Shown here: positions 32,319 through 47,567 of the stretch, one piece after another
Layout of the letters: each line of letters begins with the position of its first letter
How positions within the stretch are numbered: position 1 is the stretch's first letter
Assembly (NCBI RefSeq): GCF_900110865.1
Contig: NZ_FOFD01000002.1
Span: 678,835 to 742,834 of the forward strand
Reading direction: 5' to 3'
Source: Natrinema salaciae
GTDB taxonomy: Archaea; Halobacteriota; Halobacteria; Halobacteriales; Natrialbaceae
DNA length: 64,000 nucleotides
Program-made: the position numbers and the translations under genes
Notes under the pieces: generated by a model
Database searches by the model: none
What the model saw: only the letters and a program-made list of their open reading frames with translations
Told to the model about the DNA's origin: nothing

Positions 32319-33665
32319 ATGCGCCCAGCCCACCCCACCGAGCAGGCCGTCGGTATGGAACACTACGTCAGCGAGACCGACGGCGTCGGCGGCCGCCTCC
32401 GCGAGGACGACGATCACTTCCGGGTGCGCGAACTCGAGCGCTTCGACACGGAGCCGATCGACGCGCCGACGGACGCCTACCCGCACCTCGTCGTCCGCGC
32501 GACGCTTCGAGGGTGGGACACGAACGATTTCGCCTCGCGACTCTCGGACGCGCTCGGGTGCTCCCGCGAACGGGTCAACTGGGCCGGAACGAAGGACAAG
32601 TACGCCGTGACGACCCAGCTGTTCTCCGTCTACGGGGCCGATCCCGCGGACCTGCCCGAGATCGACGGTGTCGAGATCGAGGTCGTCGGCCGCGCCGGTC
32701 GTTCGCTCGAGTTCGGGGATCTCGCGGGCAACGCGTTCGAACTCGTGGTCAGCGATCCCGAACGGCCCGAAAACGCCGTGGCGATCACCGACGAGCTGCG
32801 CGCGTTCGGCGGGCTCGAAGACGGCGAATCGACCGTCTCGATCGGCGTTCCCAACTTCTTCGGGCAGCAGCGCTTCGGGAGCCGTCGCCCGGTCACGCAC
32901 GAGGTCGGCCTCGCGATCGCCCGCGGTGACTGGGAGGGGGCGGTGATGGCCTACCTCGGGAATCCGACCGACGCGGAGCCCGAGTCGACGCAGGAAGCAC
33001 GCGCGTTCGTCGAGGAGACCCGCGACTGGCAGGCGGCCCTCGAGCGGGTCCCGAACCGTCTCCGCTACGAACGGTCGATGATCCACGCGCTCGCCGAACG
33101 CGACGGCGACCCCGGGCCCGAGGCGTTCCGCGCTGCGCTCGAGCGCGTGCCCTCGAACCTCCAGCGGCTGTTCGTCCACGCCGCCCAGTCGTACGCGTTC
33201 AACCTGATGCTCTCCGAACGGCTCGAGCGCGGACTGCCGTTCGACCGGCCCGTCGCGGGCGACGTGGTCTGTTTCTCGGATACCGACGCTCCCGCGGGCC
33301 TCGAACTCCCCGACACTGATCGGCTCCAGCGCGTCGACGAGCGCCGGCTCGATTCGGTGACCCGCCACTGCGAGCGGGGCCGAGCGTTCGTCACCGCCCC
33401 GCTGGTCGGCACCGAGACGGAATTGGCCGACGGCGAGCAGGGCGAGATCGAACGCGACGTCCTCGACGATCTCGGCCTGTCGCCCGCGGACTTCGACCTC
33501 CCCGGCGAGTTCGGGTCGACCGGTACTCGACGAGCGATGCTCCTCCGGACGGATCTGCGACTCGAGGCCGAGCCGCTGTCGCTCGCGTTCGCGCTGCCGA
33601 AGGGGTCGTACGCGACGGTGGTCTGTCGGGAGTACCTGAAGGTCGATCCGGTCGCCCTCGGCTGA
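32319..33665 (+). CDS. truD: tRNA pseudouridine synthase TruD
   Basis: A 448-residue TruD-family enzyme. The catalytic Asp is in [14 protein letters not shown] near residue 92, and [21 protein letters not shown] is the conserved C-terminal half motif. An insertion typical of the archaeal TruD subfamily lies between 220 and 330. The enzyme makes pseudouridine at tRNA position 13 (and in archaea possibly 35 or others). A TruD-specific insertion domain explains the length. ATG at 32319; a second in-frame ATG at 32355 ([10 protein letters not shown]) would fit the domain start as well. Confidence 0.93.
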
Positions 33666-33753
33666 ACGCGGTTCGTCTCGGCGATATCGAACCTGTGCCG
33701 TCCGCCAGCCGTCGAAATACGTATCCGCTCGTCCCGAATATCGGGGAACCGAG

Positions 33754-33804
33754 ATGAGCGACGCGACGCACTTCGACGCGACGGAATCGAGGGTTCGACG
33801 ATGA
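33754..33804 (+). CDS. 16-codon ORF overlapping the next gene by ATGA
   Basis: ATG at 33754, 16 codons (MSDATHFDATESRVRR), then TGA at 33802-33804, which overlaps the next ATG at 33801. Such an overlap would couple translation of the downstream gene. It may also be chance; no other evidence supports a peptide. Confidence 0.2.
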   Translation: MSDATHFDATESRVRR

Positions 33805-34097
33805 TCGGCACGGACGAGAACCGCGAGATAGTCGAGTGGCGGAAAACGACCGAGGACGGGCAGACGGTGTACGTAATCGAGTACAGCGAACCCGTTCCGG
33901 AGCCGGCGGGCCGATCGAAGACGCCGTTCGGTGCGAGCAGCGGCGGAACCGTTCCGGCCCGGACGCAGTACGTTCAGCTACCGGACGGGGAGCGGATTCC
34001 CGCGACGGAAGCGGCGTTCGACGCCGAGGGAACCACGCTTCGAGTCCGCCACCGGCCGTCGGTACTGGACCGCATCCGGCGATACCTCCCCTGGTGA
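33801..34097 (+). CDS. Small hypothetical protein, basic C-terminus
   Basis: A 98-residue protein with no recognised family. The first half (IVEWRKTTEDGQTVYVIEYSE) reads as two beta strands, the middle is Gly/Ser/Thr-rich, and the C-terminal tail is basic (RVRHRPSVLDRIRRYLPW), unusual in this acidic proteome. A short 16-codon ORF ends on its start codon. It lies at the boundary between the truD block and the accessory region. A membrane-attached or nucleic-acid-contacting tail is possible but unproven. Confidence 0.55.
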   Translation: MIGTDENREIVEWRKTTEDGQTVYVIEYSEPVPEPAGRSKTPFGASSGGTVPARTQYVQLPDGERIPATEAAFDAEGTTLRVRHRPSVLDRIRRYLPW

Positions 34098-34477
34098 CCG
34101 GCGTCCGCCGCCCGTTTGCGACGTCCCGTCGGTTCGAGAGCGGCCAGCCGCGACCGCGGCGAGCGACCGACGCGGCCGACGCGGCCGACGGTATTGGCTC
34201 ACGGATGCGAGGAAAAGTCAGAATTCGTGCCATTATTCAGAGCTGATAGTTATGTGCATTGGAAATGTCTTCGCGCGTCGAACCGGCCGTTCGTCGCTCG
34301 ACGGGTCGAGTCGGTGGTCTCCCTCAGACGCCACTCGAGTGGGTTTCGCGGCCGAAAACTGGTACAGACCTCGGACGCGTCGCGGGAGCGCAGACGAACT
34401 GGTCGAAGCGCAGAGTACTGGCCTGACGTACAATTTTCACAAAACTTACTTTATAGAAGAATATACTCACCTAATAC
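34098..34477 (+). promoter_or_regulatory. Intergenic region with the carbamoyltransferase promoter
   Basis: No gene seen in 380 bp. A small run of GCGGCCGAC units lies at 34169-34187. Base composition drops to AT-rich near the end; TTTATAG at 34450-34456 is a good TATA box about 25 bp before the next ATG, which predicts a leaderless transcript. Confidence 0.5.
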
Positions 34478-36229
34478 ATGGGCTATGTACTTTCATTTAA
34501 GCCGTCTATAGGGCTTTACGGACAACACGATCCGAGTGCTGCTCTCTTCGCCGACGGCGAGCTCCGCTTTGCGGTCGAAGAAGAACGACTGAGCCGTGAT
34601 AAACACGCCACGGATACCTTTCCGGAGCGAGCGATCCGTGCCTGTCTCGAGCACGAGGGGCTCGCACTCGCCGACCTCGAGAAGATCGTGTTGCCGTACG
34701 ATCCGCGACTCCGAACGAAGATCCGCGGTCACTATCTGCGGAAGACGCTCCAGCACGACGGCGTCCTCCAGACGCTCTCACACCTGCGAAACGTGGTCAG
34801 AGACGAAGTCGTCGCTCGGTACCTGCCGACACACGACGTCGAATCGCGACTCGAGCGGATCGGGACGCCACTCCCGCCGATCGAGTGTCGCTCGCACCAC
34901 GCCTGCCACGCGGTGAGCGCGTTTCACCCGTCGACGTTCGACGAGGCGCTGCTCCTCACCATCGACGCGAAAGGCGAGTACGATTCGACCGTCGTCTGGC
35001 ACGCGACTCCCGACGGACTCACTCGACTGCGAACCTACGAACACCCGAACAGCTGGGGGCTGTTCTACGCCGCGATCACGGAGTATCTCGGCTACCGAAT
35101 GTTCAACGGGGAAGGGAAAGTGATGGGGCTCGCTCCCTACGGCGAGGACGATCCGGAGATCGAACGCCGCCTCCGAAACGCTATCGACACCGGCGTCGAG
35201 TACGACGTCACGGCGCTCACCGGCCGATGGGGGACGGAGTACGGTGTGCGCACGCTCGAGGAGCTGTTCGATCGGCCGCGCTCGACCGCGACCGACGAGT
35301 TCGACCGGTTCGAGAAGAACCTCGCGCACACCGCACAGACGCTGCTCGAGGAGTCCGTCACGGCGATCGTCGACGAATACATCGATCGGGTCGGAACCGG
35401 TGCCGTCGGACTCGCGGGCGGCGTCGCGCTGAACTGCAAGCTGAACAAGACCGTGCGCGAACTGCCAGCCGTCGACGACGTCTTCGTCCAGCCGGTCGCT
35501 CACGACGCCGGCCTCGCGCTCGGGGGCGGCTGGATCGATCAGCGCCCGGATCGAGTCGAGCCGATGACGGACGTCTATCTGGGTCCCGAGTACGACACCG
35601 ACGCGATCCGGTCGCTCCTCGAGATGAACAAGATCGACTACGCCGAACCGGACGATCTGGAACGGTCCGTCGCCGAGTTACTCGCGAACGGGGCGCTGGT
35701 CGGCTGGTTCCAGGGTCGACTCGAACTGGGGCCGCGAGCGCTCGGCAATCGGAGCATCCTCGCGGATCCGCGAACCGACGCCTCCCGCGATCGGGTCAAC
35801 CGATTCGTCAAGCATCGCGAGGAGTGGCGTCCGTTCGCCCCGTCGATGCTCGAATCCGCCGCCGACGACTACCTGGAAGACGCGGCCGAGTCGCCGTACA
35901 TGATCGACACGTTCGACGTCGCTCCGGAACGCCGCGACGACGTGAGCGCCATCCTCCATCCAGCAGACGATACCACCCGACCCCAGACCGTTCGCGAGGA
36001 ACAGAACCCGCGGTACTACCGACTGCTCCGGGAGTTCGAGGAGATCACCGACGTCCCCGTCCTCCTCAACACGTCGTTCAACGACCACGGCGAACCGATC
36101 GTCAACACGCCGCTCGAGGCGCTCAAGGACTTCTACGGGATGGGCCTCGACGCGCTCGTCCTCGAGGATCTCGTGGTGACGAAAGACGAGTCTGCACTGA
36201 ACGGGACGGAGCCGACTCCGGTTCGCTGA
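34478..36229 (+). CDS. NodU/CmcH-type O-carbamoyltransferase
   Basis: A 583-residue protein. N-terminal NodU/CmcH domain: MGYVLSFKPSIGLYGQHDPS start, FAVEEERLSRDKH, and CRSHHACHAVSAFHPS with the metal-binding His near residue 145. The C-terminal domain (from about 400) has RLELGPRALGNRSILADPR and FAPSMLESA, the strongest family signatures. These enzymes transfer a carbamoyl group from carbamoyl phosphate through carbamoyl-AMP to a hydroxyl of a sugar or secondary metabolite, as in Nod factor and cephamycin synthesis. Here the acceptor is probably a surface or secreted glycan, given the glycan locus further right. It has a leaderless-type promoter. Confidence 0.92.
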   Translation: MGYVLSFKPSIGLYGQHDPSAALFADGELRFAVEEERLSRDKHATDTFPERAIRACLEHEGLALADLEKIVLPYDPRLRTKIRGHYLRKTLQHDGVLQTLSHLRNVVRDEVVARYLPTHDVESRLERIGTPLPPIECRSHHACHAVSAFHPSTFDEALLLTIDAKGEYDSTVVWHATPDGLTRLRTYEHPNSWGLFYAAITEYLGYRMFNGEGKVMGLAPYGEDDPEIERRLRNAIDTGVEYDVTALTGRWGTEYGVRTLEELFDRPRSTATDEFDRFEKNLAHTAQTLLEESVTAIVDEYIDRVGTGAVGLAGGVALNCKLNKTVRELPAVDDVFVQPVAHDAGLALGGGWIDQRPDRVEPMTDVYLGPEYDTDAIRSLLEMNKIDYAEPDDLERSVAELLANGALVGWFQGRLELGPRALGNRSILADPRTDASRDRVNRFVKHREEWRPFAPSMLESAADDYLEDAAESPYMIDTFDVAPERRDDVSAILHPADDTTRPQTVREEQNPRYYRLLREFEEITDVPVLLNTSFNDHGEPIVNTPLEALKDFYGMGLDALVLEDLVVTKDESALNGTEPTPVR

Positions 36230-36349
36230 CACGGTGCGAGCGGAATCACACCCCTGAAGCGGCGGGGAGACGAGTCCCGGAACCGGTTCCGGGCACAGCG
36301 TCGCGCGGTCTGGTGTCCCTCACGCGTTCGCGGAAGCGGGACGCCACAT

Positions 36350-36402
36350 CACCGTGATACAGGGAGAACGCCCACGGCTCCAGTCGTGAGACGAATCCCG
36401 TG
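36350..36402 (+). mobile_element. Possible decayed IS200/IS605-type right end
   Basis: AGAACGCCCACGGCTCCAG then TCGTGAGACGAATCCCG contains an imperfect hairpin: CCCACGGCT (36371-36379) against AGTCGTGAG (36382-36390), 7 of 9 pairs. The GAACGCCCACGG...GAATCC pattern resembles 3' ends of haloarchaeal tnpB-type elements, where the stem is normally perfect. No transposase remains are recognisable upstream. The assignment rests on this similarity and is weak. Confidence 0.3.
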
Positions 36403-36431
36403 AGCGTCATCCAGTGTAACACTGCGGTGAG

Positions 36432-36590
36432 CTATTCCGAGTTCCGAGCAAGGTCACCAACGTCGCGTTCGGCGAGCAGTTCACACCACGCGACGACGTC
36501 GTCGTCGGTCGGTGTGGCGGGATCGACCGTGTCTCGAAGGGACTCGACTCGTTGTTCTGGATCGTCGGGTTCGTCTGCGTGATCGGTCAC
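36432..36590 (-). CDS. Small acidic protein following the giant protein gene
   Basis: A GTG start at 36590 and TAG stop give 52 residues: VTDHADEPDDPEQRVESLR, then a second half with VVAWCELLAERDVGDLARN. It is strongly acidic with an amphipathic helical end, the composition of real haloarchaeal proteins, and it has no competing frame. It starts 93 bp after the stop of the 1426-residue gene on the same strand and may be co-transcribed. No family recognised. Confidence 0.5.
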   Translation of the reverse strand: MTDHADEPDDPEQRVESLRDTVDPATPTDDDVVAWCELLAERDVGDLARNSE

Positions 36591-36683
36591 GGTGTCTCGC
36601 GAACGCAGACGTGCGTCGGTTGCTATCGTTCGGTTCTGTCGGCCGCCGAGCGGTCGTTTACGCGATACGTCAACGCAGCACGT

Positions 36684-39600
36684 TCACCGATCCTCCCGTT
36701 CCGGTGGGTTACTGCCGCGTCCGCCGTCGGTGTTCGAGACCGGCTCACCGTCGGGGAAATCGGGTTCGTCGCTTCCCTCGACCTCGAACAAGTCGTTCGC
36801 GAGCGTCTCGTATCCTGTTCTCCGGAGACCGTGGTCGATGCGGATCACGTAGTCGCCCGGGTTTTTGACGTTGACCGACGACAACGTGTCGGCGGTTCGT
36901 GAAACCGTTCGTCCCAGAGCGCCATCAGCGCGGAGCAGCTCCGCGTCGCCCGCTGCCTGGAGCGACTCGCTCACGGCCTCGATGCACGCTTCGATCCGTC
37001 TCCTGGGACCGTGTCTCTTTGCACCCTCCACGACCACGTCGGCGTAGAGGCCTTCCAGGAACGCCGCCGGATCGTCGACGTACGGCCCCCTCGTGAACTC
37101 TCGGAGCTCCGCATCGAGTCGTCGACGCCACTCGTCGCCACCGTGTTGAGCCGCGTCGAAGATCGCCCGAACGTACACGGCGGCGACGAACTCGGCTGGC
37201 TGCTCCGGCGTTTCCTTCGTCGCCGTCGCTTCGATCCGGGTGCTGACGAGCTCGAACCACTCCGCCGTCTCGGAGACGTCGGTGTGCGTTCGACCGACCT
37301 GCGAGAGCGCCTCGGCGTAGACCCGCTTGAAGATGTCTGCCCGCTCGAGTTCGATCCACTCGAGCGAGAACGCTTCCTGGAGGACTGCCAGGACCTCGGT
37401 CACCCCGAACCGGACCTCCTCGGCCGGAGCGTCGGCGGCGAGTGCAAGTGCACCGCCAAACACCGAGGCCACGTACGTGACCGGATGCGGTGGATTGTCT
37501 GGAGCGGCCGCGGCTGCCTGAATCTGGGACAGCACTGCCTCGACCAACCGTTCGTGTGTCCGTTCGCCGACGTCCGTCCGGGTCAACACTGCCGCCAGAA
37601 TCTCGGCGTCGGTCGACGCGAACGCCTCGAACCAGTCCACCGTGTCGGGCCCGTCGATGGACTCGCGACTGGTCCGTAGCGACTGGACGAGCACCGTGAT
37701 CCACTCCTGGGCGCGACTCGAGTCCCCGTCAGTCGCCCAGTTGACGGCGGCTTCGCCGTACACGTCCGCGAGGAACTGAACCGGATCGTCGACCGAATCG
37801 GTCGTGGTCGCCCGTGCCTCGATGCGATCCGTGAGGCCGGCGTACCAGGTATGCTCCTCGCGTGGCGTCACTCCATCGTCCGAATCGGCGTCGAAGCCCT
37901 GAACGTGTGTCGAGAGCGTCTCACGGTAGATCTCGGTCAGATATTGCGTTCTCTCCGCAGTGGATGCGTCCACCGCGACCCCCCGCGTCACTGCGGCGTC
38001 GTATCGCTCCATCCAGTCCTCGAAGCCGAGGGAGTCATCGAACGGGATCGTGTCCCTCCCGTACGGGTAACTGCTGACCGCGTCGGGATCGTCCTGCTCG
38101 ACGTCGCCAAAGGAGGCGAGCGCGTTCGCATGCAGGGCTGCTCGGCGTTGCTGTTCTGTCTCGAACTGTCCCGACTCCGCGATCGTATCGACGAGCCGGT
38201 GACACGTCGAAAACAACAGTTCCGCTCGCTCGAGTTCGCCCAGTTGGACGATCGTCCGAACGGCGTGCCCGTACCCGTCGAGGACGAACGTTTCAGGATC
38301 GTGGTCGAGGTCGAACGCTGTCGCTGTGTGGCACATGCTCCGGCCGACGGCGTCGAAGAAGGAGCCGACGTCCTCGTCCGGACAGCCGTGCTCGAACAGC
38401 CACAGACCGATCCCTGCGACGTAGAACTCCGTGAGCGTCATCCGCTGAACCTCCCGATCGATGATGATCTGGACTGCCTCCCTGGCACGGGACTCGATAT
38501 CGGCTACCCAGGCCGACAGTTCCTCGGGAGAACACTCGATACCTGCGACTGCCCCGAGCATAGACGCGAAACTGCTCCCGAGGACGCCCATCGTGTAGCG
38601 ATCGTTGGGGCTCATTGCGTGCTGGCGAACGCGGGAGACGATGGTGGTGATGCCGCCGTTCGCCGCCGCCGGATCGTCAGCCCGTCGGACGATTCGGCCG
38701 ACCGCACCCCCGTAAACGAAGTGGAGCGGAAACTGCCACCCGTCATCCGAGACCATCTCGTGGAGTGCCTGGTCGACACACTCGATCGCACCGTGGTTCA
38801 CCCTCGAGCCGTCCGGCGGCTGTGCGAGCCGAGCCAGTGCGCCCGTGAAGGCGGTGGCAAACGGTTCCACGTCGCCACCGACCGACTCCCGTCCGTGCGG
38901 GGCGGCGGTTTCGTTCGTGACCTCGAGCACGCCGCGTGCGACCGCGTGGACCCACTCGTCGGTCCTCGGGTTCGCTCGTGCGACGGCTGCGATCGCAGTT
39001 CCGTAGACCTCGCCCCGATACAGGAGGGACTCGTCGGAGTCGGCGGTTCGATTTCGCCCGACGTCCGCTACGAGGTCGTCGATGAACGAGAGCCACTGCT
39101 CGGCCGCGGCTGGCCCGTGCGTCGTCGAGATGACGTCGACGGCCTCGGCGACGACGGTGCCGACGAACTCGCCGTCCAGGGCGTGATCCGGTACTCCCGC
39201 GATCGCTGCCAGCGTGCTCTGATCCGTCACCGACTCGACGTCGATCGACCGGCGAGACGGCGACTGGATCTCGTTCCAGCCGATCGCATCGAGCAGGTCG
39301 CGAGCGACGGTCGCCGGCTCTCGGTCGATATCGGCGATCGATTCGGCGACCGAGAACTCGACGCGGTCGGTCCAGGCCGCCAATTCGTCACAGCCCGCCC
39401 GTTCGGCGACGTCCTCGAGTCGTGCGCGATTGGTGTCGTCACAGATGAGCACCGCGCCCGCACAACTCCCGTCGTCGACCCACTCGGGAAGTGCTCGAAC
39501 GCCGTCGTCGCCGTTGATAGCCGCAGGCTCGGCACCGTACGTCGCGACGACGACCGCGTTCGGCGTTGCCTCGATCCCCGTCCGAACGTGATCGGGACGC

Positions 39601-40964
39601 GTGAGAACGGGAAGGGTAACGGTCGCTCCCCAGTCGGCGAGTTCCGAGGCGAGGGACGCGGCCAGTTGTCGTTTCCCGCTCGCTTTGGGACCGGAGAGAA
39701 CGACAAGCCCCCCGTCGAGTGCCTCGAGGAGTTCGTCTCCGTCGACGAGCGATCTCCAGTCCGGATCAGTCTCGTCGTCGGTGCCCTCGAGCTCCCGGAT
39801 CGGGGTCGGCAGTTCACGCTCGGCTGCGGCATCGTGCAACGCTTGCGGACCGTCCCAGTGCCAGGCACCGACGAGTGGGGAGGTGCCGTACTCCTCGGGT
39901 CCCATCGACATCGTTTCGAACGAGGGACCCGCCGAGTGGAGCGCGTCCACTGCCTGCCCGATCACGTCACGTGCTGCGTCGACCACCGACTCCTCGTCGG
40001 CGTCGTCAGCGAGCCGGTCGCGGATCAGTGCTCGCGCGGGATCGTCAGCGAACACGCGGAGGTGATCGACCGTTCCTGGCGGAAGATCGAGGGCGATTTC
40101 CAGTCCCTCGGCGGTTGTGGGGAGTACCCGATATCGAGCGAGGGGCTCGAGCCAGTCTGCATCGTCCGCCAGTCCAACGGTGACCAGCGCTACCGCAGCG
40201 AGGACCGCTGGCGAGCGTTCGTGAGGCCGTTGACTCGGGAGGCCACCGCTCGGGACGAGCCGCGAGACGGCGTCCGCAAACGCCTCGCTGAACGGTCCGA
40301 CCGAGACGTCACGGTCTCCGAACGCTCGCCCGACGTCGTCAGGGAAGAGCACCTCCGCAGTGTCGTATTTCGAGAGGGAGAGAAACGCTGCCGGCGTGAC
40401 TGTCGCATCGTACCATCCCAGGTGTTGCTGCAGCTCCGGGGTGTCGAAGTAGTATGGCGGATACCTGGCCTGCTCCAGCACGGCCGCTCGCTCGTCGTCT
40501 CGTAGTCCGGGCGGACTTCGCTTGTTGAGACGCTGTCGAACAGCGTCGACTGCGGCTGCGGCACCGGTCGGTGGTGTTCGGACCAGCAAAACGGTGTCGA
40601 CCGTCTCGATGAAACTCCCAGAGACGCCGTGGTCGCTCCGACAGAGCCAGTCGAAGCTCCGTGGACGGGTGACGAGCACCGCACCACCCGATCTGGAAAA
40701 CAGCGATTTCTCACCGTACTCGTACGTATAACTCGAGAGGGGTTCGTCCTCGAGGTCGAACACCGCGGAGACGAAGTCCTCGACGATCACGGGTTCCTGA
40801 TCGTCGACGGCGGTGGTCTCGGGCAACTGTTCGACGGACTGACACAGCGGTTGCAGGTGCCGTGACGTTCCGATACCGGGTGCACTGAGTACGAGGGTCA
40901 CCCCACCCGACTCGACAGCGTCTGCCAGTTCGTCAGGTATGACTTCCTGAATACGGGATGTCAT
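36684..40964 (-). CDS. Giant 1426-residue protein with two degenerate P-loops and helical repeats; unknown function
   Basis: I do not recognise the family. Residues 20-36 (VTLVLSAPGIGTS) look like a Walker A loop without its Lys. Residues 418-436 (GGLVVLSGPKASGKRQLA) form a better one, with GKR where GKS/T is normal; GAVLICDDTN at 503-512 fits Walker B. This layout (N-terminal domain, NTPase, helical C-terminus) recalls STAND NTPases or AAA-like proteins. From about 590 on, repeats of 60-75 residues recur with a motif like P.xF..xVY..A...A (DPVQFLADVYGEA, QPAEFVAAVYVRAI, DPAAFLEGLYADVV), probably TPR/HEAT-like. No signal peptide or membrane segment. It lies between a carbamoyltransferase and orphan small genes. 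The divergent upstream region (40965-41159) is AT-rich. Signalling or defence is possible; evidence is weak. Confidence 0.7.
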   Translation of the reverse strand: MTSRIQEVIPDELADAVESGGVTLVLSAPGIGTSRHLQPLCQSVEQLPETTAVDDQEPVIVEDFVSAVFDLEDEPLSSYTYEYGEKSLFSRSGGAVLVTRPRSFDWLCRSDHGVSGSFIETVDTVLLVRTPPTGAAAAVDAVRQRLNKRSPPGLRDDERAAVLEQARYPPYYFDTPELQQHLGWYDATVTPAAFLSLSKYDTAEVLFPDDVGRAFGDRDVSVGPFSEAFADAVSRLVPSGGLPSQRPHERSPAVLAAVALVTVGLADDADWLEPLARYRVLPTTAEGLEIALDLPPGTVDHLRVFADDPARALIRDRLADDADEESVVDAARDVIGQAVDALHSAGPSFETMSMGPEEYGTSPLVGAWHWDGPQALHDAAAERELPTPIRELEGTDDETDPDWRSLVDGDELLEALDGGLVVLSGPKASGKRQLAASLASELADWGATVTLPVLTRPDHVRTGIEATPNAVVVATYGAEPAAINGDDGVRALPEWVDDGSCAGAVLICDDTNRARLEDVAERAGCDELAAWTDRVEFSVAESIADIDREPATVARDLLDAIGWNEIQSPSRRSIDVESVTDQSTLAAIAGVPDHALDGEFVGTVVAEAVDVISTTHGPAAAEQWLSFIDDLVADVGRNRTADSDESLLYRGEVYGTAIAAVARANPRTDEWVHAVARGVLEVTNETAAPHGRESVGGDVEPFATAFTGALARLAQPPDGSRVNHGAIECVDQALHEMVSDDGWQFPLHFVYGGAVGRIVRRADDPAAANGGITTIVSRVRQHAMSPNDRYTMGVLGSSFASMLGAVAGIECSPEELSAWVADIESRAREAVQIIIDREVQRMTLTEFYVAGIGLWLFEHGCPDEDVGSFFDAVGRSMCHTATAFDLDHDPETFVLDGYGHAVRTIVQLGELERAELLFSTCHRLVDTIAESGQFETEQQRRAALHANALASFGDVEQDDPDAVSSYPYGRDTIPFDDSLGFEDWMERYDAAVTRGVAVDASTAERTQYLTEIYRETLSTHVQGFDADSDDGVTPREEHTWYAGLTDRIEARATTTDSVDDPVQFLADVYGEAAVNWATDGDSSRAQEWITVLVQSLRTSRESIDGPDTVDWFEAFASTDAEILAAVLTRTDVGERTHERLVEAVLSQIQAAAAAPDNPPHPVTYVASVFGGALALAADAPAEEVRFGVTEVLAVLQEAFSLEWIELERADIFKRVYAEALSQVGRTHTDVSETAEWFELVSTRIEATATKETPEQPAEFVAAVYVRAIFDAAQHGGDEWRRRLDAELREFTRGPYVDDPAAFLEGLYADVVVEGAKRHGPRRRIEACIEAVSESLQAAGDAELLRADGALGRTVSRTADTLSSVNVKNPGDYVIRIDHGLRRTGYETLANDLFEVEGSDEPDFPDGEPVSNTDGGRGSNPPEREDR

Positions 40965-41159
40965 GAGTTCACTTCAACCAACTCCGTCGGCGAACGAATA
41001 CGAGAGAACGACAACGGCGGTTGACTATGTTCGAATATATTCGCACTTAATATAATAGTTTCTACCGCGAGTGGTTCCCGTCACAGTCAGACGGACGCTC
41101 CCGTCCACTGCCGTCGGTGCGCATCGGTGGGCGGCGAAGATGTCCTCCGTGCGGATCAA

Positions 41160-41321
41160 TCAGGATTCGACGGTACAGCCCCTCTCGGCGTTGTCGTGAT
41201 ACTCGCTGTCCTCACAGACATCGTCGTTTACGACGGTGAGGCTCGGTGGATACCGCATCGTGGTCGGTGGTCCGCTCTCGAGCGGATTGACGGAGGCCGA
41301 CATTCCTGCGTCACTCGGCAT
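41160..41321 (-). CDS. Small acidic hypothetical protein
   Basis: A 53-residue open frame with ATG at 41321: MPSDAGMSASVNPLESGPP, later RYPPSLTVVNDDVCEDSEY, ending with a second Cys (RGCTVES). Acidic, two Cys, good codon composition, no competing gene on the other strand until 41379. The two Cys could bind metal or form a disulfide. No family recognised. It is upstream of the giant gene on the same strand, with 195 bp between, and divergent from the next small gene. Confidence 0.4.
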   Translation of the reverse strand: MPSDAGMSASVNPLESGPPTTMRYPPSLTVVNDDVCEDSEYHDNAERGCTVES

Positions 41322-41378
41322 CGTGTTTCACTGTCGTCATTCACAGCTGATTTCGTGGCTCGCTGCGTTTGGATACCA

Positions 41379-41648
41379 ATGAACGTCCTCGACAGCGAGT
41401 CCTACTCCTACGTGCTGGTTGACGACGATGGCGAGTGGATCCTCACCTTTCTGCTGGGTGGGCCAGTTGAACGTGACGTGTCTGTCGCGTTGACCGACGA
41501 CGAGGTGACAGCGATAGCGGAGGGAGACCGGTCAACTGGCGACATCGTGGAGCAGTTCCGCGACGATCCGGCGGCGTACGAGGGGCGACGAGTGCACCCG
41601 CCCGTCCGGCCTCGGCGTGATAGTGAAGCGCCCGACTCGGATTCCTGA
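41379..41648 (+). CDS. Small acidic hypothetical protein
   Basis: An 89-residue protein, MNVLDSESYSYVLVDDDGEW start, a TFLLGGPVERDVSVALTDDE core and a mixed-charge tail (PPVRPRRDSEAPDSDS). The core has an alternating strand pattern and an LTDDEVTAIAEGD helix. No family recognised. The frame is open upstream, but the ATG at 41379 starts the protein-like part. It is the first gene of the AT-richer patch and points away from the giant gene. Confidence 0.55.
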   Translation: MNVLDSESYSYVLVDDDGEWILTFLLGGPVERDVSVALTDDEVTAIAEGDRSTGDIVEQFRDDPAAYEGRRVHPPVRPRRDSEAPDSDS

Positions 41649-41959
41649 GCGGAGCGGGAGTCTCGAGACAGAGCGTCTGCAGCCTTCAGCGTCGTTCTGA
41701 TACTCAGCGCGGTCGTCATCGGGGACGAGCGCGCCGTCGGCCTGGAGAGACACGTACTCGCCACCCTCGAGGGCACGAAACGATTCACATACCGATCGCA
41801 CCGCTGTCGTGCGATCAGGTGTGTAATGACGTTCAGTTGTTACGATAGCTACAGAACGTCTGTCAGTTCCGCTGCGCTCGTATCGGGCCACTTCCGTACT
41901 CGATTCCAACGACCTTTCATAGCACCCGTACGGAAGGAAATCAAAATAAGACCGCTTGC
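41649..41959. other. Intergenic region with a possible HalOD1-like gene fragment
   Basis: No intact gene in 311 bp. On the minus strand, between about 41640 and 41860, one frame carries protein-like sequence (VTTERHYTPDRTTAVRSV, then LEGGEYVSLQADGALVPDD) without a plausible start codon, weakly recalling the N-terminus of HalOD1-type domains. It may be a gene remnant or chance. Confidence 0.25.
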
Positions 41960-42364
41960 TCAGAGGTTGCTTTCGAGCGACGAGACGATGGACTCCGTAC
42001 GTTTGTCGACTTTGTTCATATTGGTGCACGGTTCTTTGTCCACCGTGAGGACTCCGTCTTCGTAGCCGATGTCGCCGGTCATGCCCGTCTCGTTTTTGAA
42101 CACCACCGTTTCGAGGCTCTCCTGTAGCGCTTCACGCCCCAGTTCGTCGCTACAGATTGACTCGATTGCATCGATCGTCGGCTGGAAGTACACTTTGGAC
42201 CATCCTTCGAACCAGAGGTCTTCATTGACGTTCACGTCGGTCAGCGATTCCCAGTCAACGTCAAGGTCTACCTCGAAACCGGCTGCATCATCCATCGATT
42301 CTTTCAGTGGGGGCATTTCGTTCTCCTCGAACTCCTTTACTTTCCGGCGATCGCTTAGATCCAT
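41960..42364 (-). CDS. Orphan acidic protein
   Basis: A 134-residue protein, strongly acidic with low GC for this genome: DLSDRRKVKEFEENEMPPLK start, VDWESLTDVNVNEDLWFEGW, FQPTIDAIESICSDELGREA and a Lys/Ser-containing tail. It reads as an alpha-beta domain with two Cys (ICSD, EPCTN). No family recognised; the composition and size resemble immunity- or antitoxin-like orphans, but that is only an impression. AT-rich promoter on the upstream side (42370-42420). Confidence 0.6.
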   Translation of the reverse strand: MDLSDRRKVKEFEENEMPPLKESMDDAAGFEVDLDVDWESLTDVNVNEDLWFEGWSKVYFQPTIDAIESICSDELGREALQESLETVVFKNETGMTGDIGYEDGVLTVDKEPCTNMNKVDKRTESIVSSLESNL

Positions 42365-42440
42365 TAATTTTTCACCTACTAAGTAGCTAAACTATGGGTA
42401 CTTAATATTACGTATTCGTCTTCCGTATTCTCGGCCACCA

Positions 42441-42536
42441 ATGCTATCGATAGCCGAGGCGAACTCGACGCTCGAGGGCCAGTGGGTAACGGTCCATCCC
42501 AGTCGTGACCCCGACGACTCTGACTCGAATGCTTGA
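42441..42536 (+). CDS. Possible very short protein
   Basis: ATG at 42441, 31 codons (MLSIAEANSTLEGQWVTVH, then an acidic end) and TGA at 42534-42536, abutting the end of the convergent gene. Acidic and Ser/Asp-rich as haloarchaeal proteins are, but too short to judge. Could be the leftover of a longer gene. Confidence 0.2.
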   Translation: MLSIAEANSTLEGQWVTVHPSRDPDDSDSNA

Positions 42537-42881
42537 TCAGTGGTTCTCGGTGACGAGTGTGCCACGTTCGGTCACCGCTTCGAGAAACTCGGTCTCTGAA
42601 AGGTCGGCGAGCGATCCGCGTGGAGACAGTAATTCGACGAGCCATTCGGCGTCACAGTCGTGGAGAAACGCCTCCCACTCCGAGAGATCGAACTCGTCGA
42701 AGCCGTAGGACGCGCCACCGAGTCCGTGGCCCTTCCCTTGCCACAACCGTATCTCCCGGGCGTCGAAGGAAATTCTGAGTTCTTTCGGCCAATCAGTCCC
42801 GTGGGGCGTGTCGGGATCCGGGTCGCCACTCGAGAGAACGTAGTCGGTGTCCATCGTATCGGATTCGGGTTCGTCGTTCAT
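42537..42881 (-). CDS. Orphan acidic protein
   Basis: A 114-residue protein starting MNDEPESDTMDTDYVLSSGD. A central KELRISFDAREIRLWQGKGH segment and a helical C-terminal half (EWEAFLHDCDAEWLVELL) suggest a compact alpha-beta fold. Very acidic start. No family recognised. It begins 16 bp after the stop of the zinc-ribbon gene (42898-43254) on the same strand, so they form an operon. The frame is open 50 codons further upstream but that part overlaps the preceding gene and is not coding in character. Confidence 0.55.
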   Translation of the reverse strand: MNDEPESDTMDTDYVLSSGDPDPDTPHGTDWPKELRISFDAREIRLWQGKGHGLGGASYGFDEFDLSEWEAFLHDCDAEWLVELLSPRGSLADLSETEFLEAVTERGTLVTENH

Positions 42882-42897
42882 AGGAATTGATACGCTG

Positions 42898-43254
42898 TCA
42901 TACGTCGTCTCGGTGCAGTCGCCGAAATTCTTCGACTGATTCACAGTCGTGTTCGTCCAGCCGTGTGACCCAGCCACCGAATTTGTATCGGCGCCAGCAC
43001 TGCTGGCCGTCGATGAAGACGGGATTGTCACCGATGTCAGCTACCACCGCACTATCGATGGGGTCGTCGGACTCTCGTTGTAGATACGCCCGTCCAGTGG
43101 CTGGCTCTTCATCGGAACTGGTCACTGCCCCTGCGTCACAGGCTTGACAGACGAGGTTTGCATATGTGCTTGCAAACTCGACATCGTACACCTCGAAGTG
43201 ATTTTCACAGAGTGCACAGACCGTCTGGGGTTCACCCGGCGGAAATGCCACCAT
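42898..43254 (-). CDS. Zinc-ribbon protein of unknown function
   Basis: A 118-residue protein. An N-terminal zinc ribbon has Cys13-x2-Cys16 (CALC) and Cys36-x2-Cys39 (CQAC), with an acidic middle and a basic-aromatic C-terminal part (QQCWRRYKFGGWVTRLDEHD). The pattern suits a small DNA- or protein-binding protein. It is the first gene of a two-gene operon with the orphan downstream. Start chosen at ATG 43254; the longer frame upstream runs into what looks like a broken HEAT-repeat gene. Confidence 0.6.
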   Translation of the reverse strand: MVAFPPGEPQTVCALCENHFEVYDVEFASTYANLVCQACDAGAVTSSDEEPATGRAYLQRESDDPIDSAVVADIGDNPVFIDGQQCWRRYKFGGWVTRLDEHDCESVEEFRRLHRDDV

Positions 43255-43479
43255 CTCTATGATGTGTGCCGTCACCACTGAAATAAAGCCTCGCTTCTGC
43301 AGCGCAGGTACTGCAGCAGATCGCTCCGATCGGTCTCTACGATCGGTTCGACGATGAAAATTCGAATTCGACGTTCGGAGTCCGGTCGAGTTCGACAAGT
43401 GTGCTCGTCGCCAGCATCCGTGCGCGCGGTCCAGGCAGGCCTGACGGAGCATCAGTCCGAATACGTCTGCGTCCATACC

Positions 43480-43750
43480 GTCGTCATGCCGGCGTTCCAC
43501 GACCGCTTTGGCGGTGATACTTCGACTGTTCACTCCGACATCGAGGACGATGTCGGTGACCGGCCGAATCGCCTCGGGATGTGCTGTTGCAACGTGACAT
43601 AGTGTCCACCCGGTATTGCTCGAGACGGTCACGTCGGATTCTCGCTCAGCGATCTCGAGCACGACACCAAGTGGTCGCGAACACCGCTAGGATACGTGCT
43701 GGCCGCCGCAGAGAGGAAGCGAATCGACGATAGCAGTGAGTTGTCCAGTG
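43480..43750 (-). pseudogene. Frameshifted fragment of a HEAT-repeat protein
   Basis: Two overlapping reverse frames read as one HEAT-like repeat pair. LLSSIRFLSAAASTYPSGV in the first frame (about 43748-43670) is followed, after a shift near 43665, by VVLEIAERESDVTVSSNTG and TLCHVATAHPEAIRPVTDI in the second frame. The helix-turn-helix pattern with AxxHPExIRPV is what haloarchaeal HEAT-repeat proteins show. Neither frame continues as a proper protein on both sides, so this is a relic of a longer gene. Confidence 0.45.
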
Positions 43751-43854
43751 GTTCAGGGACCTGGTGAGAGCGTCCCGTCACGACAGCGTTTCCATGCGGA
43801 ACCCTTACTATACGTGGGCGAATCGCTCGATTCAATCGAGGAACGCCGAAACCG

Positions 43855-44160
43855 ATGTGGCTTGAATGGGCTGACTCCAGTATCGAGTACGTCGAAGACC
43901 CGGCACGAAGCCCCATTGAAGTCGAAATCGAGGGAACGAGACACTCGATCGAGCCGGGAGCCCGATGGCACTCGAGGAGGTGGACCACCATCCAGCTGAC
44001 GCCAGTCCGGGTGCGATTCCGTCGGCACTCGGGCTGCCCGTGGACGAGTTCGACGGGTCACCGGTGTATCGCGGTAGCGAGACCGGTCTGGAATTGTCCT
44101 CCGCGGACCTCGGTGCTGAACCCGAGAGGAGACTCGCCATCCGCTCCTCGGAGAAGTGCA
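43855..44160 (+). pseudogene. Possible frameshifted small gene
   Basis: ATG at 43855 opens MWLEWADSSIEYVEDPARSP and reads as an acidic protein until about residue 38 (IEPGARW), where the composition turns Arg/Ser-rich. A second frame from ATG at 43965 continues with acidic protein-like sequence (MALEEVDHHPADASPGAIPS and YRGSETGLELSSADLGAEP). The two together look like one protein with a frameshift near 43960. Alternatively these are two short unrelated ORFs. Confidence 0.3.
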
Positions 44161-44250
44161 ATACGGTCGGTACGCATACAAACTCGAGGCCGTGCTGTAT
44201 CTCGACCGGCCGTCGAGTGACTGAGATCGGAATCCGGGGCCACATATCGG

Positions 44251-45441
44251 CTACGATAGGTATCCGATCCAGGTCTGCCGGTGTTCGGGTAACTTCGAGC
44301 GGTCGTGTTCGTTGTACACGACGAAGAGTCCGTCCAGAACCGGAACGAGGACGTCCGCGTCGGCGTACCGACCGGCGACGGGGTGGCCATCGGGACTGGT
44401 GGGAACGCCAGATCCGTCGTCGTTCGGATGCGTGAGTTCGGGTTCGGGGGTTGCGCCCGGAGGGCGGACCACGAAACGAAAGTCCCGAAGCCCCCCGTCA
44501 CCGTCGAATCGGACGAGCCACGGGAGGGAACAGCCGTCGAACAGCGTCGTTCCGGAGAGCACGTAGCCGTCGTCGAGTGCGACGGCGTCCTGCCCGAAGT
44601 TACTCCTGTTTGGGAGGCCCAACGATCGGTCGAGCAGGATCTCGCCACGGGTATCGATCACGAGTATCCGTGCCTGATTCGCCGTCGATCCTTCCCACGC
44701 TTTGCCGGCGACGACGCTGTCTCCGTCTCGATGGCTGGGGGCGATGCTCTCGAGCGTATCGCTGCTGCCAGTCTCGGCGTAGTAGTACCGGCTCCGTTCC
44801 ACAGTTCCGTCGCCGGCGATCCAGACGACGCGTGAGCCGCCGACGAACCGGAGTGTCCCCGTCCTGCCCGCGACGAGCGACAGGCAGTCGTTGCCGTAGT
44901 AGCTCTCGCGCCAGCGTTCCGTCCCGTCATCGAGATCGGCGGCGAGCACCCAGTCTCTGGTCCCGTAGACCCGCTCCCAGGAATCGGGGGTTCGCCTGGT
45001 GTACTCGCCGGTGTGGCCACCCGCGACGACACCGCCCGGTATCGCGACCACTGTCTCGAATCCGTCACCGACGCCGTTCGGATAGTCCCGTTCCCAGCGA
45101 CGGTCGCCGCTGGCCGTGAACGACGCCAGCCAGGCCGGTGTCTCCTCGTCCGAGCGGTCCGTGTCGGAGCCGACTGTTACACCGGCGGCGACTGGTCCCG
45201 CCGGTGTCGCTGTGACGGCCGTCGGGCGTCGTTGATCGCTCCAGGAGTACTCCCAGCTGACGGCCCCAGTCGCGTCGATCCGCGTGAGGAAGCCACCCGT
45301 GCCATCGCCGCGTCTCGCTCCAGCTTCGTACCGGCCGACGACGTACAGACCGCCGTGGCCCGTCGATGCTGCGTCCGTGACGACGCGCTCGCGTTCGGCA
45401 CCGAGTCGCTGCCACCATCGCACCGTCACATCCCGTCTCAT
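44251..45441 (-). CDS. Beta-propeller protein, PQQ/WD40-like
   Basis: A 396-residue protein with about six to seven repeats of beta strands closing in W-containing or VVAG motifs (RRWERDYPNGVGDGFETVV, VVAIPGGVVAGGHTGE, FVGGSRVVWIAGDGT, VALDDGYVLSGTTLFDG). It looks like a beta-propeller of the PQQ/WD40-like group that reports on events, such as polymer or ligand sensing. No signal peptide, so cytoplasmic or exported by an unusual route. It overlaps the stop of the upstream small gene by ATGA at 45438-45441. It is the left end of the glycan locus on the minus strand. Confidence 0.7.
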   Translation of the reverse strand: MRRDVTVRWWQRLGAERERVVTDAASTGHGGLYVVGRYEAGARRGDGTGGFLTRIDATGAVSWEYSWSDQRRPTAVTATPAGPVAAGVTVGSDTDRSDEETPAWLASFTASGDRRWERDYPNGVGDGFETVVAIPGGVVAGGHTGEYTRRTPDSWERVYGTRDWVLAADLDDGTERWRESYYGNDCLSLVAGRTGTLRFVGGSRVVWIAGDGTVERSRYYYAETGSSDTLESIAPSHRDGDSVVAGKAWEGSTANQARILVIDTRGEILLDRSLGLPNRSNFGQDAVALDDGYVLSGTTLFDGCSLPWLVRFDGDGGLRDFRFVVRPPGATPEPELTHPNDDGSGVPTSPDGHPVAGRYADADVLVPVLDGLFVVYNEHDRSKLPEHRQTWIGYLS

Positions 45442-45677
45442 CGTTCTGCGCCCCCGGCCCTCCCGTTCCGGGCAGCAGTACGGAGCGACCGTCTCTCCTC
45501 GTTGTCGGGATAGTTGTCGGCCAGCGTCTCGAGACGGCCGAGATCGGGCTGTACCCTCTCGATATCGTCCGCGTTAGACGCCTCCTTGACGGCACTGCGG
45601 ACGTTCCTGGCGAGCGGAGACGGACTGTCGTCGGGTGCGGTATCCTCGAACGGCTGCCCCGAGTCGCCGTCGTTCAT
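45438..45677 (-). CDS. Small acidic helical protein, operon partner of the beta-propeller
   Basis: A 79-residue protein, MNDGDSGQPFEDTAPDDSPS start, acidic N-terminus, then helices rich in Ala/Asp/Glu (VRSAVKEASNADDIERV, DLGRLETLADNYPDNEERR) and a basic Arg tail. It overlaps the propeller start codon by 4 bp, so translation is coupled. No family recognised. TATA-like TTATTTATT on the minus strand near 45704-45714. Confidence 0.6.
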   Translation of the reverse strand: MNDGDSGQPFEDTAPDDSPSPLARNVRSAVKEASNADDIERVQPDLGRLETLADNYPDNEERRSLRTAARNGRAGGAER

Positions 45678-46031
45678 TACGAGTGATAACGCACGGAAGT
45701 TAATAAATAATACCAATCCGTCCACCTTGGAGAACGGTAGTTGGTGCGGACGGAGGGGCCGTCGGTACTCGTCGATCGGCGCAGAGACGTTTATTGTCCC
45801 GTTCAGCGAGGCTGGACTGTCGCCTTCCGCTGGGTGCTCGAGGTCGCCGACGCGGGCGCAGCCAGCGGATTCGGCGGTATCGTCGACACCCCATCGGAGG
45901 CCGGAGCCGGCCGACGCGCGGTGATTTCTTCGTTCGCCACGGTCCGCAGTTCCAGTCGTCTCTCCCGGCGGAGACAGCGGCATCAGGCGAAACGACGTGA
46001 AGGCACCGGGATCGCTAGTACAGGAAGGAGG
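45678..46031. other. Intergenic region, no gene seen
   Basis: 354 bp between the small helical gene and the epimerase gene, both on the minus strand. The part next to 45678 (45680-45720) is AT-rich with a TATA-like box. The rest is GC-rich and gives only Arg/Ser-rich open frames on both strands, which I regard as non-coding. Confidence 0.3.
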
Positions 46032-47219
46032 TCAGAGCTGCGTCGCCAGCCGTTCGACGCCGCTCTCCAGTTCGATCCCGGGTACGTATCCGAGACGATC
46101 GTTCAGCTTCGAAACGTCCGCGCAACGCCGGTCGACGGTGTACGGTCGCGGATGCTCCACGAACGCGACCTCGCCGCTCCCGACGGTGTCGACGACGGTT
46201 CGGGCGAGATCCGCGATGGACACTTCCGTTCCGGACCCGATATTGAACGTCTCGTTGGCACCCGCGGGGCCGAGCGTTCGGACGGTCGCTTCGATCGCGT
46301 CGTCGATGTACGTGAAGTCTCGCGTTTGCGATCCATCACCGTGGACCGGGACCGGCTCGTCGTTCTTCGCGTGTTCGATGAACCGCGGCACGACGTAGCC
46401 GTACTCCGAGGACTCCTGGCGCGGCCCGTAGACGTTGAAGTATCGGACGATCGAGTAGTCGATCCCGGATTTACTGCAAAACGCCTTCGTATAGCGCTCG
46501 TCCGCCAGCTTCGCGACGGCGTAGTTGGTCTTCGGTGACTTCTCGTCGTCCTCCTCGTAGGGCGGTTCGACGAGATCGCCGTACACTTCGGAGGTCGACG
46601 TGAACAGGACGCGGTCGATGTCGCGCTCCTCTGCCGCCTGGAGAACGGTCTTCGTCCCCTCCATATTCACCTCGAGTACCTCGAGCGGGTTCTCGAGCGT
46701 CCGTCGAACGCCCATCATGGCGGCCATATGAACCAGGATATCCGCGTCGTCGACGAGGTCGCACACGGTATCGCCGTCGGTGATATCGCCCTCGACGAGT
46801 TCGACACTCGAGTCGACGTTGTCCGCCGATCCGGTCGACAAATCGTCCAGTGCGACGACGTCGTTCGTCGACGCCAGCCGGTTCGCGAGGTGACTGCCAA
46901 TGAACCCCGCACCGCCGGTGATGAGGACTTTCTTGTCGACCAGCTCGTCCGCCCCAGCACCCGTCGACGAACGCGGTTTCGTGACGCTCGGGACCGACCC
47001 GTTGCGGGAGGCGTCTCCGGCCGCTTGCGTCGTGGCTCCTGAGTGCACCTCGTCGCTGGTCGCGACGGCGGCCGATTCGTCCTGCACGCTCGTTTCCGCC
47101 GGTGAGCCGTCAGCCGAACCGAAGAGACGTTCCCCGTCGACGGTCGCCGTGTCACGGCTCACGGCTCGTCGTCCACCAACAAGACCCAGATCGGTAGTCG
47201 AACCACCTTTAATTACCAT
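46032..47219 (-). CDS. NAD-dependent sugar-nucleotide epimerase/dehydratase with a long N-terminal extension
   Basis: A 395-residue protein. Residues 1-94 are a Ser/Thr/Gly/Asp-rich low-complexity extension. The extended SDR fold starts at VDKKVLITGGAGFIGSH (GGAGFIG at 102-108). The TSTSEVYG serine and NYAVAKL (YxxxK) catalytic residues are present, as is RYFNVYGPRQ. The core is closest to UDP-glucose 4-epimerases. It probably supplies an activated sugar for the glycan locus. The ATG at 47219 is the only Met before the core; GTG codons occur inside the extension and could start a shorter form. A shared upstream element lies 75 bp before the start codon. Confidence 0.9.
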   Translation of the reverse strand: MVIKGGSTTDLGLVGGRRAVSRDTATVDGERLFGSADGSPAETSVQDESAAVATSDEVHSGATTQAAGDASRNGSVPSVTKPRSSTGAGADELVDKKVLITGGAGFIGSHLANRLASTNDVVALDDLSTGSADNVDSSVELVEGDITDGDTVCDLVDDADILVHMAAMMGVRRTLENPLEVLEVNMEGTKTVLQAAEERDIDRVLFTSTSEVYGDLVEPPYEEDDEKSPKTNYAVAKLADERYTKAFCSKSGIDYSIVRYFNVYGPRQESSEYGYVVPRFIEHAKNDEPVPVHGDGSQTRDFTYIDDAIEATVRTLGPAGANETFNIGSGTEVSIADLARTVVDTVGSGEVAFVEHPRPYTVDRRCADVSKLNDRLGYVPGIELESGVERLATQL

Positions 47220-47567
47220 ATTTACGGAAGTAATTTACACACCTACCTTCTTTGTTATCTATTCTATATACTGTGAAAAATAAAGATGGGACGATTGCTG
47301 GCGCGTTATACATGCATTAAACCGCCTGTCGGCGGGGTTCGGATGGCGATGCGAGTTCACTTCAGCGGTGCCCTCGAGCCCCGGAATCCACTCGGTGATG
47401 CGCTGGCGATCGCAGTCCGCCGAGACGCGGATCTGCGGTACACGCGGATCGCCCCCACCGAACGCCGAAACGGAACGGGCGATGGAGTCGGGAAGAGACG
47501 GCAACGAGGAATCGAACGGAGCAGCGATACTAACGGGTCCAGTGGCGCGACCGAAGCCGCGTGAGCC
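47220..47567. promoter_or_regulatory. Intergenic region with epimerase promoter
   Basis: 348 bp without a gene. 47220-47290 is very AT-rich; on the minus strand it gives a TATA box AGTATATAG (about 47257-47265) for the epimerase. Beyond it is the repeat element at 47294. The rest, up to the glycosyltransferase stop at 47568, is GC-rich and shows no coding frame I would trust. Confidence 0.45.
47294..47356 (+). repeat. Upstream element shared by two glycan-locus genes, copy A
   Basis: ATTGCTGGCGCG (47294-47305), TGCAT (47313-47317), then a hairpin CCGCC-TGTC-GGCGG (47322-47335) and GGATGGCGATGCGA. Copy B at 52614 has ATTGCTGACGCG, TGCAT, a shorter GC hairpin (CGCC-GCTC-GGCG) and GATGCGGATCGCA. 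Copy A begins 75 bp upstream of the epimerase start codon, B 76 bp upstream of the PIG-L gene start. The equal spacing suggests a regulator site upstream of the TATA box. Confidence 0.4.

What the first reader, a model, noticed from the sequence alone, without database searches (positions are those of the whole stretch)
36432..40964. Giant 1426-residue protein with two degenerate P-loops, helical repeats and a coupled small gene
I could not place this protein in a known family. It has an N-terminal P-loop-like motif without Lys (SAPGIGTS, residues 27-34), a second one (GPKASGK, 425-431) followed by a Walker B-like strand (GAVLICDD), and then about 800 residues of helices with a recurring P..F...VY..A motif. 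This resembles the layout of STAND NTPases: sensing or effector part, nucleotide switch, repeat region. A 52-codon acidic gene starts 93 bp downstream on the same strand and could be a partner or effector. Position at the edge of an orphan-rich patch supports an accessory role, possibly defence. None of this proves function.
Basis: partly seen in the sequence, partly recalled or inferred. Interest (0 to 1): 0.65.

Follow-up and report, generated by a model that had tools for sequence, protein, structure and literature searches.

The report
Degenerate STAND-like giant on archaeal island
A salt-loving archaeon carries, on a gene island absent from a close relative, a very large protein descended from immune-receptor-like switch ATPases that has lost parts of its switch, next to the broken stump of the gene that normally accompanies it.

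Summary
In detail: one intact 1426-aa minus-strand gene (36684-40964), two off-consensus P-loops, helical repeats. It is a degenerate member of a family of 1057-1898-aa STAND-type proteins found here only in haloarchaea. Distant relatives mostly have both P-loops, a Walker B, the GNP motif and a winged-helix-like region; two pass Pfam's nSTAND3 cut-off. Profiles tie the window protein to them in both P-loop domains. In its branch the first P-loop lost its lysine, the second has Arg instead of Ser/Thr, and the GNP/winged-helix region is undetectable in all 20 members (41-100 bits in relatives). It is STAND-derived, not a complete STAND switch. The 52-codon gene is not a partner: it is the 5' stump of a ~650-aa HEAT-repeat gene that follows the giant gene in seven relatives. 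Region 36193-46022 is absent from a congener with matching flanks, and copies moved recently between families. dN/dS is about 0.3, so the protein is still constrained. Most likely role: accessory conflict (antiviral) sensor or adaptor working without a normal NTPase cycle, here without its HEAT partner. The defence role is only inferred; structure prediction was inconclusive for the NTPase part.

The parts
36684..40964 (-). giant gene, 1426 aa, intact and under purifying selection
40230..40964 (-). D1 (residues 1-245): P-loop domain; P-loop SAPGIGTS at 40863-40886 without the lysine
40035..40205 (-). hydrophobic stretch and LPP motif between the P-loop domains (residues 254-310)
39345..39737 (-). 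D2 (residues 410-540): degenerate STAND NTPase core; Walker A GPKASGKR 39669-39692, Walker B GAVLICDD 39435-39458
36825..39284 (-). helical repeat region (residues 561-1380)
36432..36590 (-). 52-codon ORF = 5' stump of a ~650-aa HEAT-repeat gene
41379..41648 (+). c3, 89-aa orphan that adjoins the subtype II giant gene in relatives
41960..42364 (-). c7, 134-aa orphan shared with related loci
42537..42881 (-). c4, 114-aa orphan; in relatives directly downstream of the subtype II giant gene
42898..43266 (-). c16, ~122-aa cysteine-containing orphan
44251..45441 (-). c6, 396-aa repetitive orphan (propeller-like by eye only)
45489..45716 (-). c5 stump: first ~76 codons of a gene that is about 930-1375 aa long in relatives
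36193..46022 (.). island absent from the matching site in congener G003 (L112)

Best explanation
The gene encodes a STAND-derived giant protein that keeps the ancestral repeat region and two P-loop domains but whose nucleotide switch is degraded. Shown: common descent with haloarchaeal STAND-type proteins, loss of key residues, no detectable GNP/winged-helix region, purifying selection, a variable island, and a HEAT-repeat neighbour that is only a stump here. Inferred: the helical repeats bind a target (a viral or other foreign protein); the remaining P-loop (K431) at most binds nucleotide without a normal hydrolysis cycle; the signal is passed to a separate protein, in relatives the HEAT-repeat protein (subtype I) or the 105-aa c4 protein (subtype II). 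It would thus be an accessory conflict sensor or adaptor. In this genome the HEAT partner is missing, so the system is probably impaired or acts through something else.
For: Profile-profile matches of D1 (E 2.3e-27) and D2 (E 5.5e-18) to relatives with full motifs. The NTPase-half HMM hits all 20 family members at 38-58 bits while the GNP/winged-helix half hits none (at most 5 bits; leave-one-out control 41-100 bits). nSTAND3 above Pfam's cut-off in L042 and L104. Residues at positions 33, 62, 431 and 432. Repeat homology. dN/dS about 0.3. Patchy distribution, 24 of 392. Empty site. 95% nt identity between copies in different families. HEAT gene downstream in 7 relatives, remnants in 2 loci. 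A distant relative is followed by a PD-Lambda-4_A homologue; another lies 4.3 kb from a gene with a Cas3-like helicase domain.
Against: No relative has a known function. PADLOC has no model that fits the protein. No viral or phage copy was found. One distant relative (L104) sits among housekeeping genes. The AlphaFold models do not resolve either P-loop domain (pLDDT about 30-45), so the fold rests on sequence profiles. 'Lost' GNP/winged-helix could mean diverged beyond recognition. Six subtype I copies (G004, G018, G378, G153, G186, G007) show no HEAT gene nearby.
Confidence: 0.5

Rival explanations
1. It is a working STAND defence receptor of the ordinary kind: NTP-driven switch, effector or small partner, sensor repeats.
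For: Descent and layout; K431 invariant in 20 of 20; island.
Against: Walker A Ser/Thr replaced by Arg in 19 of 20 and Tyr in one, first P-loop lysine lost in the window branch, GNP/winged-helix region not detected; the supposed small partner is a stump.
Confidence: 0.12
2. It is a gene in decay: the remains of a once complete system on an old island, with the giant gene the last part still open and no longer useful.
For: Stumps of the HEAT and c5 genes beside it; broken or partly deleted copies of the giant gene in G378, G001 and G013.
Against: 1426 codons without a stop; dN/dS about 0.3 between this copy and five relatives, although recent decay would not yet show.
Confidence: 0.18
3. It is an accessory scaffold with a non-defence role on plasmids and islands (for example a stress, surface or replicon-maintenance function).
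For: Large HEAT-like solenoid; occurrence on big plasmids; island flanked by a carbamoyltransferase gene and by epimerase and glycosyltransferase genes.
Against: Descent from STAND proteins, a class typical of conflict systems; flanking genes are contiguous in G003 without the island, so they do not belong to it.
Confidence: 0.2

Closest known systems
Unnamed haloarchaeal STAND-type giants (L098, L099, L101-L104, L043, L042; the Halorussus aquaticus plasmid copy is annotated 'MSCRAMM family adhesin SdrC')
   Same: Order of parts: P-loop domain D1, hydrophobic segment and LPP motif, P-loop domain D2, then a long C-terminal region, with the same repeat motif in L099, L102, L104 and L100
   Different: Nearly all keep GxxGxGK[T/S] in D2, and they have the GNP-type motif and the region after it; most keep the D1 lysine
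nSTAND3 NTPases, e.g. Avs5 (PMC12931631)
   Same: D2 of distant relatives hits nSTAND3 above the cut-off and has a Walker A like GPAGSGKT and a Walker B with one acidic residue and a nearby Arg; helical repeats at the C-terminus
   Different: No Sir2 effector recognised; second P-loop domain at the N-terminus; the window protein itself is below the nSTAND3 cut-off (12.7 against 27.2 bits)
iSTAND, inactive STAND proteins of vWA-MoxR ternary systems (PMC7159879)
   Same: A STAND core with lost catalytic residues in a probable conflict system
   Different: No vWA-MoxR pair noticed beside it; homology to iSTAND proteins was not tested
HEAT-repeat proteins (Pfam HEAT_2, HEAT_EZ)
   Same: The stump at 36432-36590 belongs to a ~650-aa HEAT protein
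   Different: Only the first ~43 residues remain here, before the recognisable repeats

Membership tests
STAND NTPase | Walker A Gx4GK[S/T] | tested here: not met
   GPKASGKR: K kept in 20/20, S/T replaced by R (19/20) or Y (1/20)
STAND NTPase | Walker B strand ending in acidic residue(s) | tested here: inconclusive
   GAVLICDD present, but the alignment places the relatives' glutamate one or more positions earlier
STAND NTPase | GNP motif, helical ARC region and winged helix after the core | tested here: not met
   profile of that half scores at most 5 bits in all 20; control 41-100 bits. A strongly diverged form is not excluded
STAND NTPase | homology of the NTPase core to STAND proteins | tested here: met
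   hhalign E 5.5e-18; HMM 40 bits, E 3e-13
STAND NTPase | C-terminal sensor repeats | tested here: met
   repeat HMM 27 bits against at most 6.3 in shuffles; helical solenoid model. That they sense anything is not shown
STAND NTPase | N-terminal effector | tested here: inconclusive
   the N-terminal part is a second P-loop domain; no known effector family found
haloarchaeal two-P-loop giant family | D1 homology | tested here: met
   hhalign E 2.3e-27; profile search
nSTAND3 (PF20720) | score above Pfam's gathering cut-off | tested here: not met
   12.7 bits against 27.2; met by L042 and L104
listed anti-phage system | match to a PADLOC model | tested here: not met
iSTAND (vWA-MoxR) systems | adjacent MoxR and vWA genes | not tested
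   none noticed close by in the annotated neighbourhoods, apart from a DUF58 gene about 13.5 kb away in L041; no systematic search made

The most novel reading that the evidence does not exclude
Haloarchaea have their own class of two-P-loop STAND receptors with a hydrophobic, possibly membrane-inserting segment between the P-loop domains. One branch became a pseudo-STAND that senses with its repeats and signals through an exchangeable separate protein (HEAT-repeat or 105-aa) without NTP hydrolysis.
Probability: 0.25. Interest if true: 0.75.

Novelty: new variant of a known kind. Interest (0 to 1): 0.5.

Why it matters
Immune-type STAND proteins in archaea appear little studied (my papers search found no account of this family). 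This family gives active-looking and degenerate forms side by side, with exchangeable neighbour genes, in haloarchaea that include the cultured strain Haloferax mediterranei ATCC 33500, so the question whether a STAND-derived sensor can work without its switch becomes testable. It also corrects a tempting but wrong reading: the 'small partner gene' is debris of a larger one.

Tried and rejected
AlphaFold of residues 1-345 with five rows: mean pLDDT 31.6, unusable. AlphaFold of 360-1426: mean 57.7, NTPase part unresolved. Only the window and L035-L038 were admissible for folding, so the deep alignment could not be used. Foldseek and VIA-align on that model return importin/HEAT-like and designed helical repeats; the best Z, 18.3, is to a designed protein over model residues 189-588 (protein residues about 548-947) and the rest are middling, so no family was inferred. 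PDB profile searches hit generic P-loops only (D1 weakly resembles small GTPases, E about 0.01, not used). Rejected: the 52-codon gene as a small partner. Rejected: an intact HEAT or c5 partner elsewhere in the genome (stumps and generic HEAT hits at 30-37% identity). Looked for mobile-element ends around the island: no convincing terminal repeats among those listed. Viral copies: none (reaches close relatives only). Outside Halobacteriales: one marginal hit with stop codons, taken as chance; bacteria were not searched by profile.

Full report
What is there. The gene is real: 36684-40964, minus strand, 1426 codons, with the motifs at the stated residues. dN/dS against five relatives is 0.30-0.33 over the gene, and 0.22-0.49 by domain. 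The window comes from a haloarchaeon, probably Natrinema: the nearest named relatives of the protein are in N. ejinorense (84%), N. mahii (83%) and N. salsiterrestre (80%).

Relatives. A six-frame search finds it in 24 of 392 Halobacteriales genomes, patchily, and on plasmids of Haloferax mediterranei, Natrinema pallidum and N. thermotolerans. A profile of the N-terminal domain reaches 34 of 384 genomes at E 0.01 or better, five of them marginal (E 0.0036-0.0079), and brings in more diverged proteins with open frames of 1113-1898 aa. A phylum-wide sample gave nothing solid outside the order.

Anatomy. The family has one order of parts: D1 with a P-loop and a 'TRPR.(L/F)DWL'-type strand; a hydrophobic stretch, which ranks among the most hydrophobic segments of most members, and an 'LPP' motif; D2 with the second P-loop; then a long helical part. 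D1 and D2 of the window branch match the distant relatives with hhalign E 2.3e-27 and 5.5e-18. In L098, for example, D2 reads GPHGTGKTT ... VIVECRE ... GNPEIAKIA, and two relatives (L042, L104) pass Pfam's nSTAND3 cut-off. This is close to what is described for Avs5: Walker A GPAGSGKT, Walker B IIFIE followed by Arg (PMC12931631).

What the window branch lost. Position 33 (first Walker A lysine) is K in 8 of 20 members and T, Q, M or G in the other 12, which include the window protein; position 62 is D in the first group and E or A in the second, a paired change. In D2, K431 is kept in 20 of 20, but the next residue is R (19) or Y (1) instead of Ser/Thr. After Walker B, an HMM of the GNP/winged-helix half gives at most 5 bits in any of the 20, while each relative left out of the model scores 41-100 bits; the NTPase half gives 38-58 bits in the 20. 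So the core descends from a STAND NTPase, but two defining features are not met, and I do not file it as a complete STAND NTPase. Whether the missing region is deleted or diverged beyond recognition is open. The D1 lysine is also absent in L100 and L104.

Repeats. Some relatives carry very similar 44-52-aa repeats with a core like FLENVYAMALxxLAD; two related copies differ in number (L099 and L102). An HMM of these finds the window protein's C-terminus at 27 bits against at most 6.3 for shuffles. AlphaFold gives an all-helical solenoid, with ten-residue means mostly 70-88 from about residue 1040 to 1380 and dips between; the P-loop part is not resolved, nor is D1.

The small gene. The 52 codons align over their first 43 residues with the start of a 651-aa HEAT-repeat protein at 84% identity, E 2e-22. 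That gene lies downstream of the giant gene on the same strand, within about 90-220 bp, in G270, G010, G060, G231, G331, G237 and G013 (my ORF caller splits it in G010), and a 3' remnant is left in G351. Here it is a stump, and no intact copy was found elsewhere in the genome. The same holds for c5 at 45489-45716.

Island. In G003 the sequences matching window 33001-36192 and 46023-48500 are about 100 bp apart, so 36193-46022 is absent there. Insertion in one or deletion in the other is not decided by this alone. The island also carries c3, c4, c7, c16 and c6; in relatives c4 sits directly downstream of the subtype II giant gene in seven loci, with c3 next to it. The window locus thus looks like a composite of subtype I and II loci. 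The subtype I copies of G013 (same genus as the window) and of G231 and G331 (another family) are 95% identical in DNA, which points to recent transfer.

Function. STAND proteins with repeat sensors are typical of conflict systems, and inactive versions (iSTAND) are described (PMC7159879). Here the evidence for defence is circumstantial: mobility, gene turnover, one distant relative followed by a PD-Lambda-4_A homologue, one 4.3 kb from a gene with a Cas3-like helicase domain. Against: one relative among housekeeping genes, no matching defence model, no phenotype. I give about 0.9 to the descent, 0.85 to the HEAT stump being non-functional debris, and about 0.5 to the sensor/adaptor reading as a whole.

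Noticed in passing
L103:11580-15323: A 1247-aa gene directly downstream of a distant relative matches PADLOC PD-Lambda-4_A (E 2.6e-26, over part of the profile).
   Followed up: partly
L099:10645-11360 and L102: Closely similar 156-bp (52-aa) tandem repeats inside the giant gene, with different copy number in two related genomes: possible rapid variation of a sensor.
   Followed up: partly
NZ_CP100402.1 362111-367231: A relative is annotated 'MSCRAMM family adhesin SdrC'; this looks like a misannotation.
   Followed up: no
L112 about 6527-6544; window about 36372-36390: An 18-bp palindrome at the empty site and a weaker, imperfect one at the island's left end; may be IS remnants (fold z-scores -1.7 and -0.5, not significant).
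   Followed up: partly
G000:C2:786000-788045: Another very large open frame (1426 aa) with HEAT-like similarity elsewhere on the same contig.
   Followed up: no
L039:19280-23407: In H. mediterranei a 1375-aa protein with DUF6584 and TPR-like hits lies convergent to the giant gene; a full-length form of the c5 stump family.
   Followed up: partly
window 37851-40505 (+): 884-aa open frame antisense to the giant gene; best taken as a GC-rich artefact.
   Followed up: no
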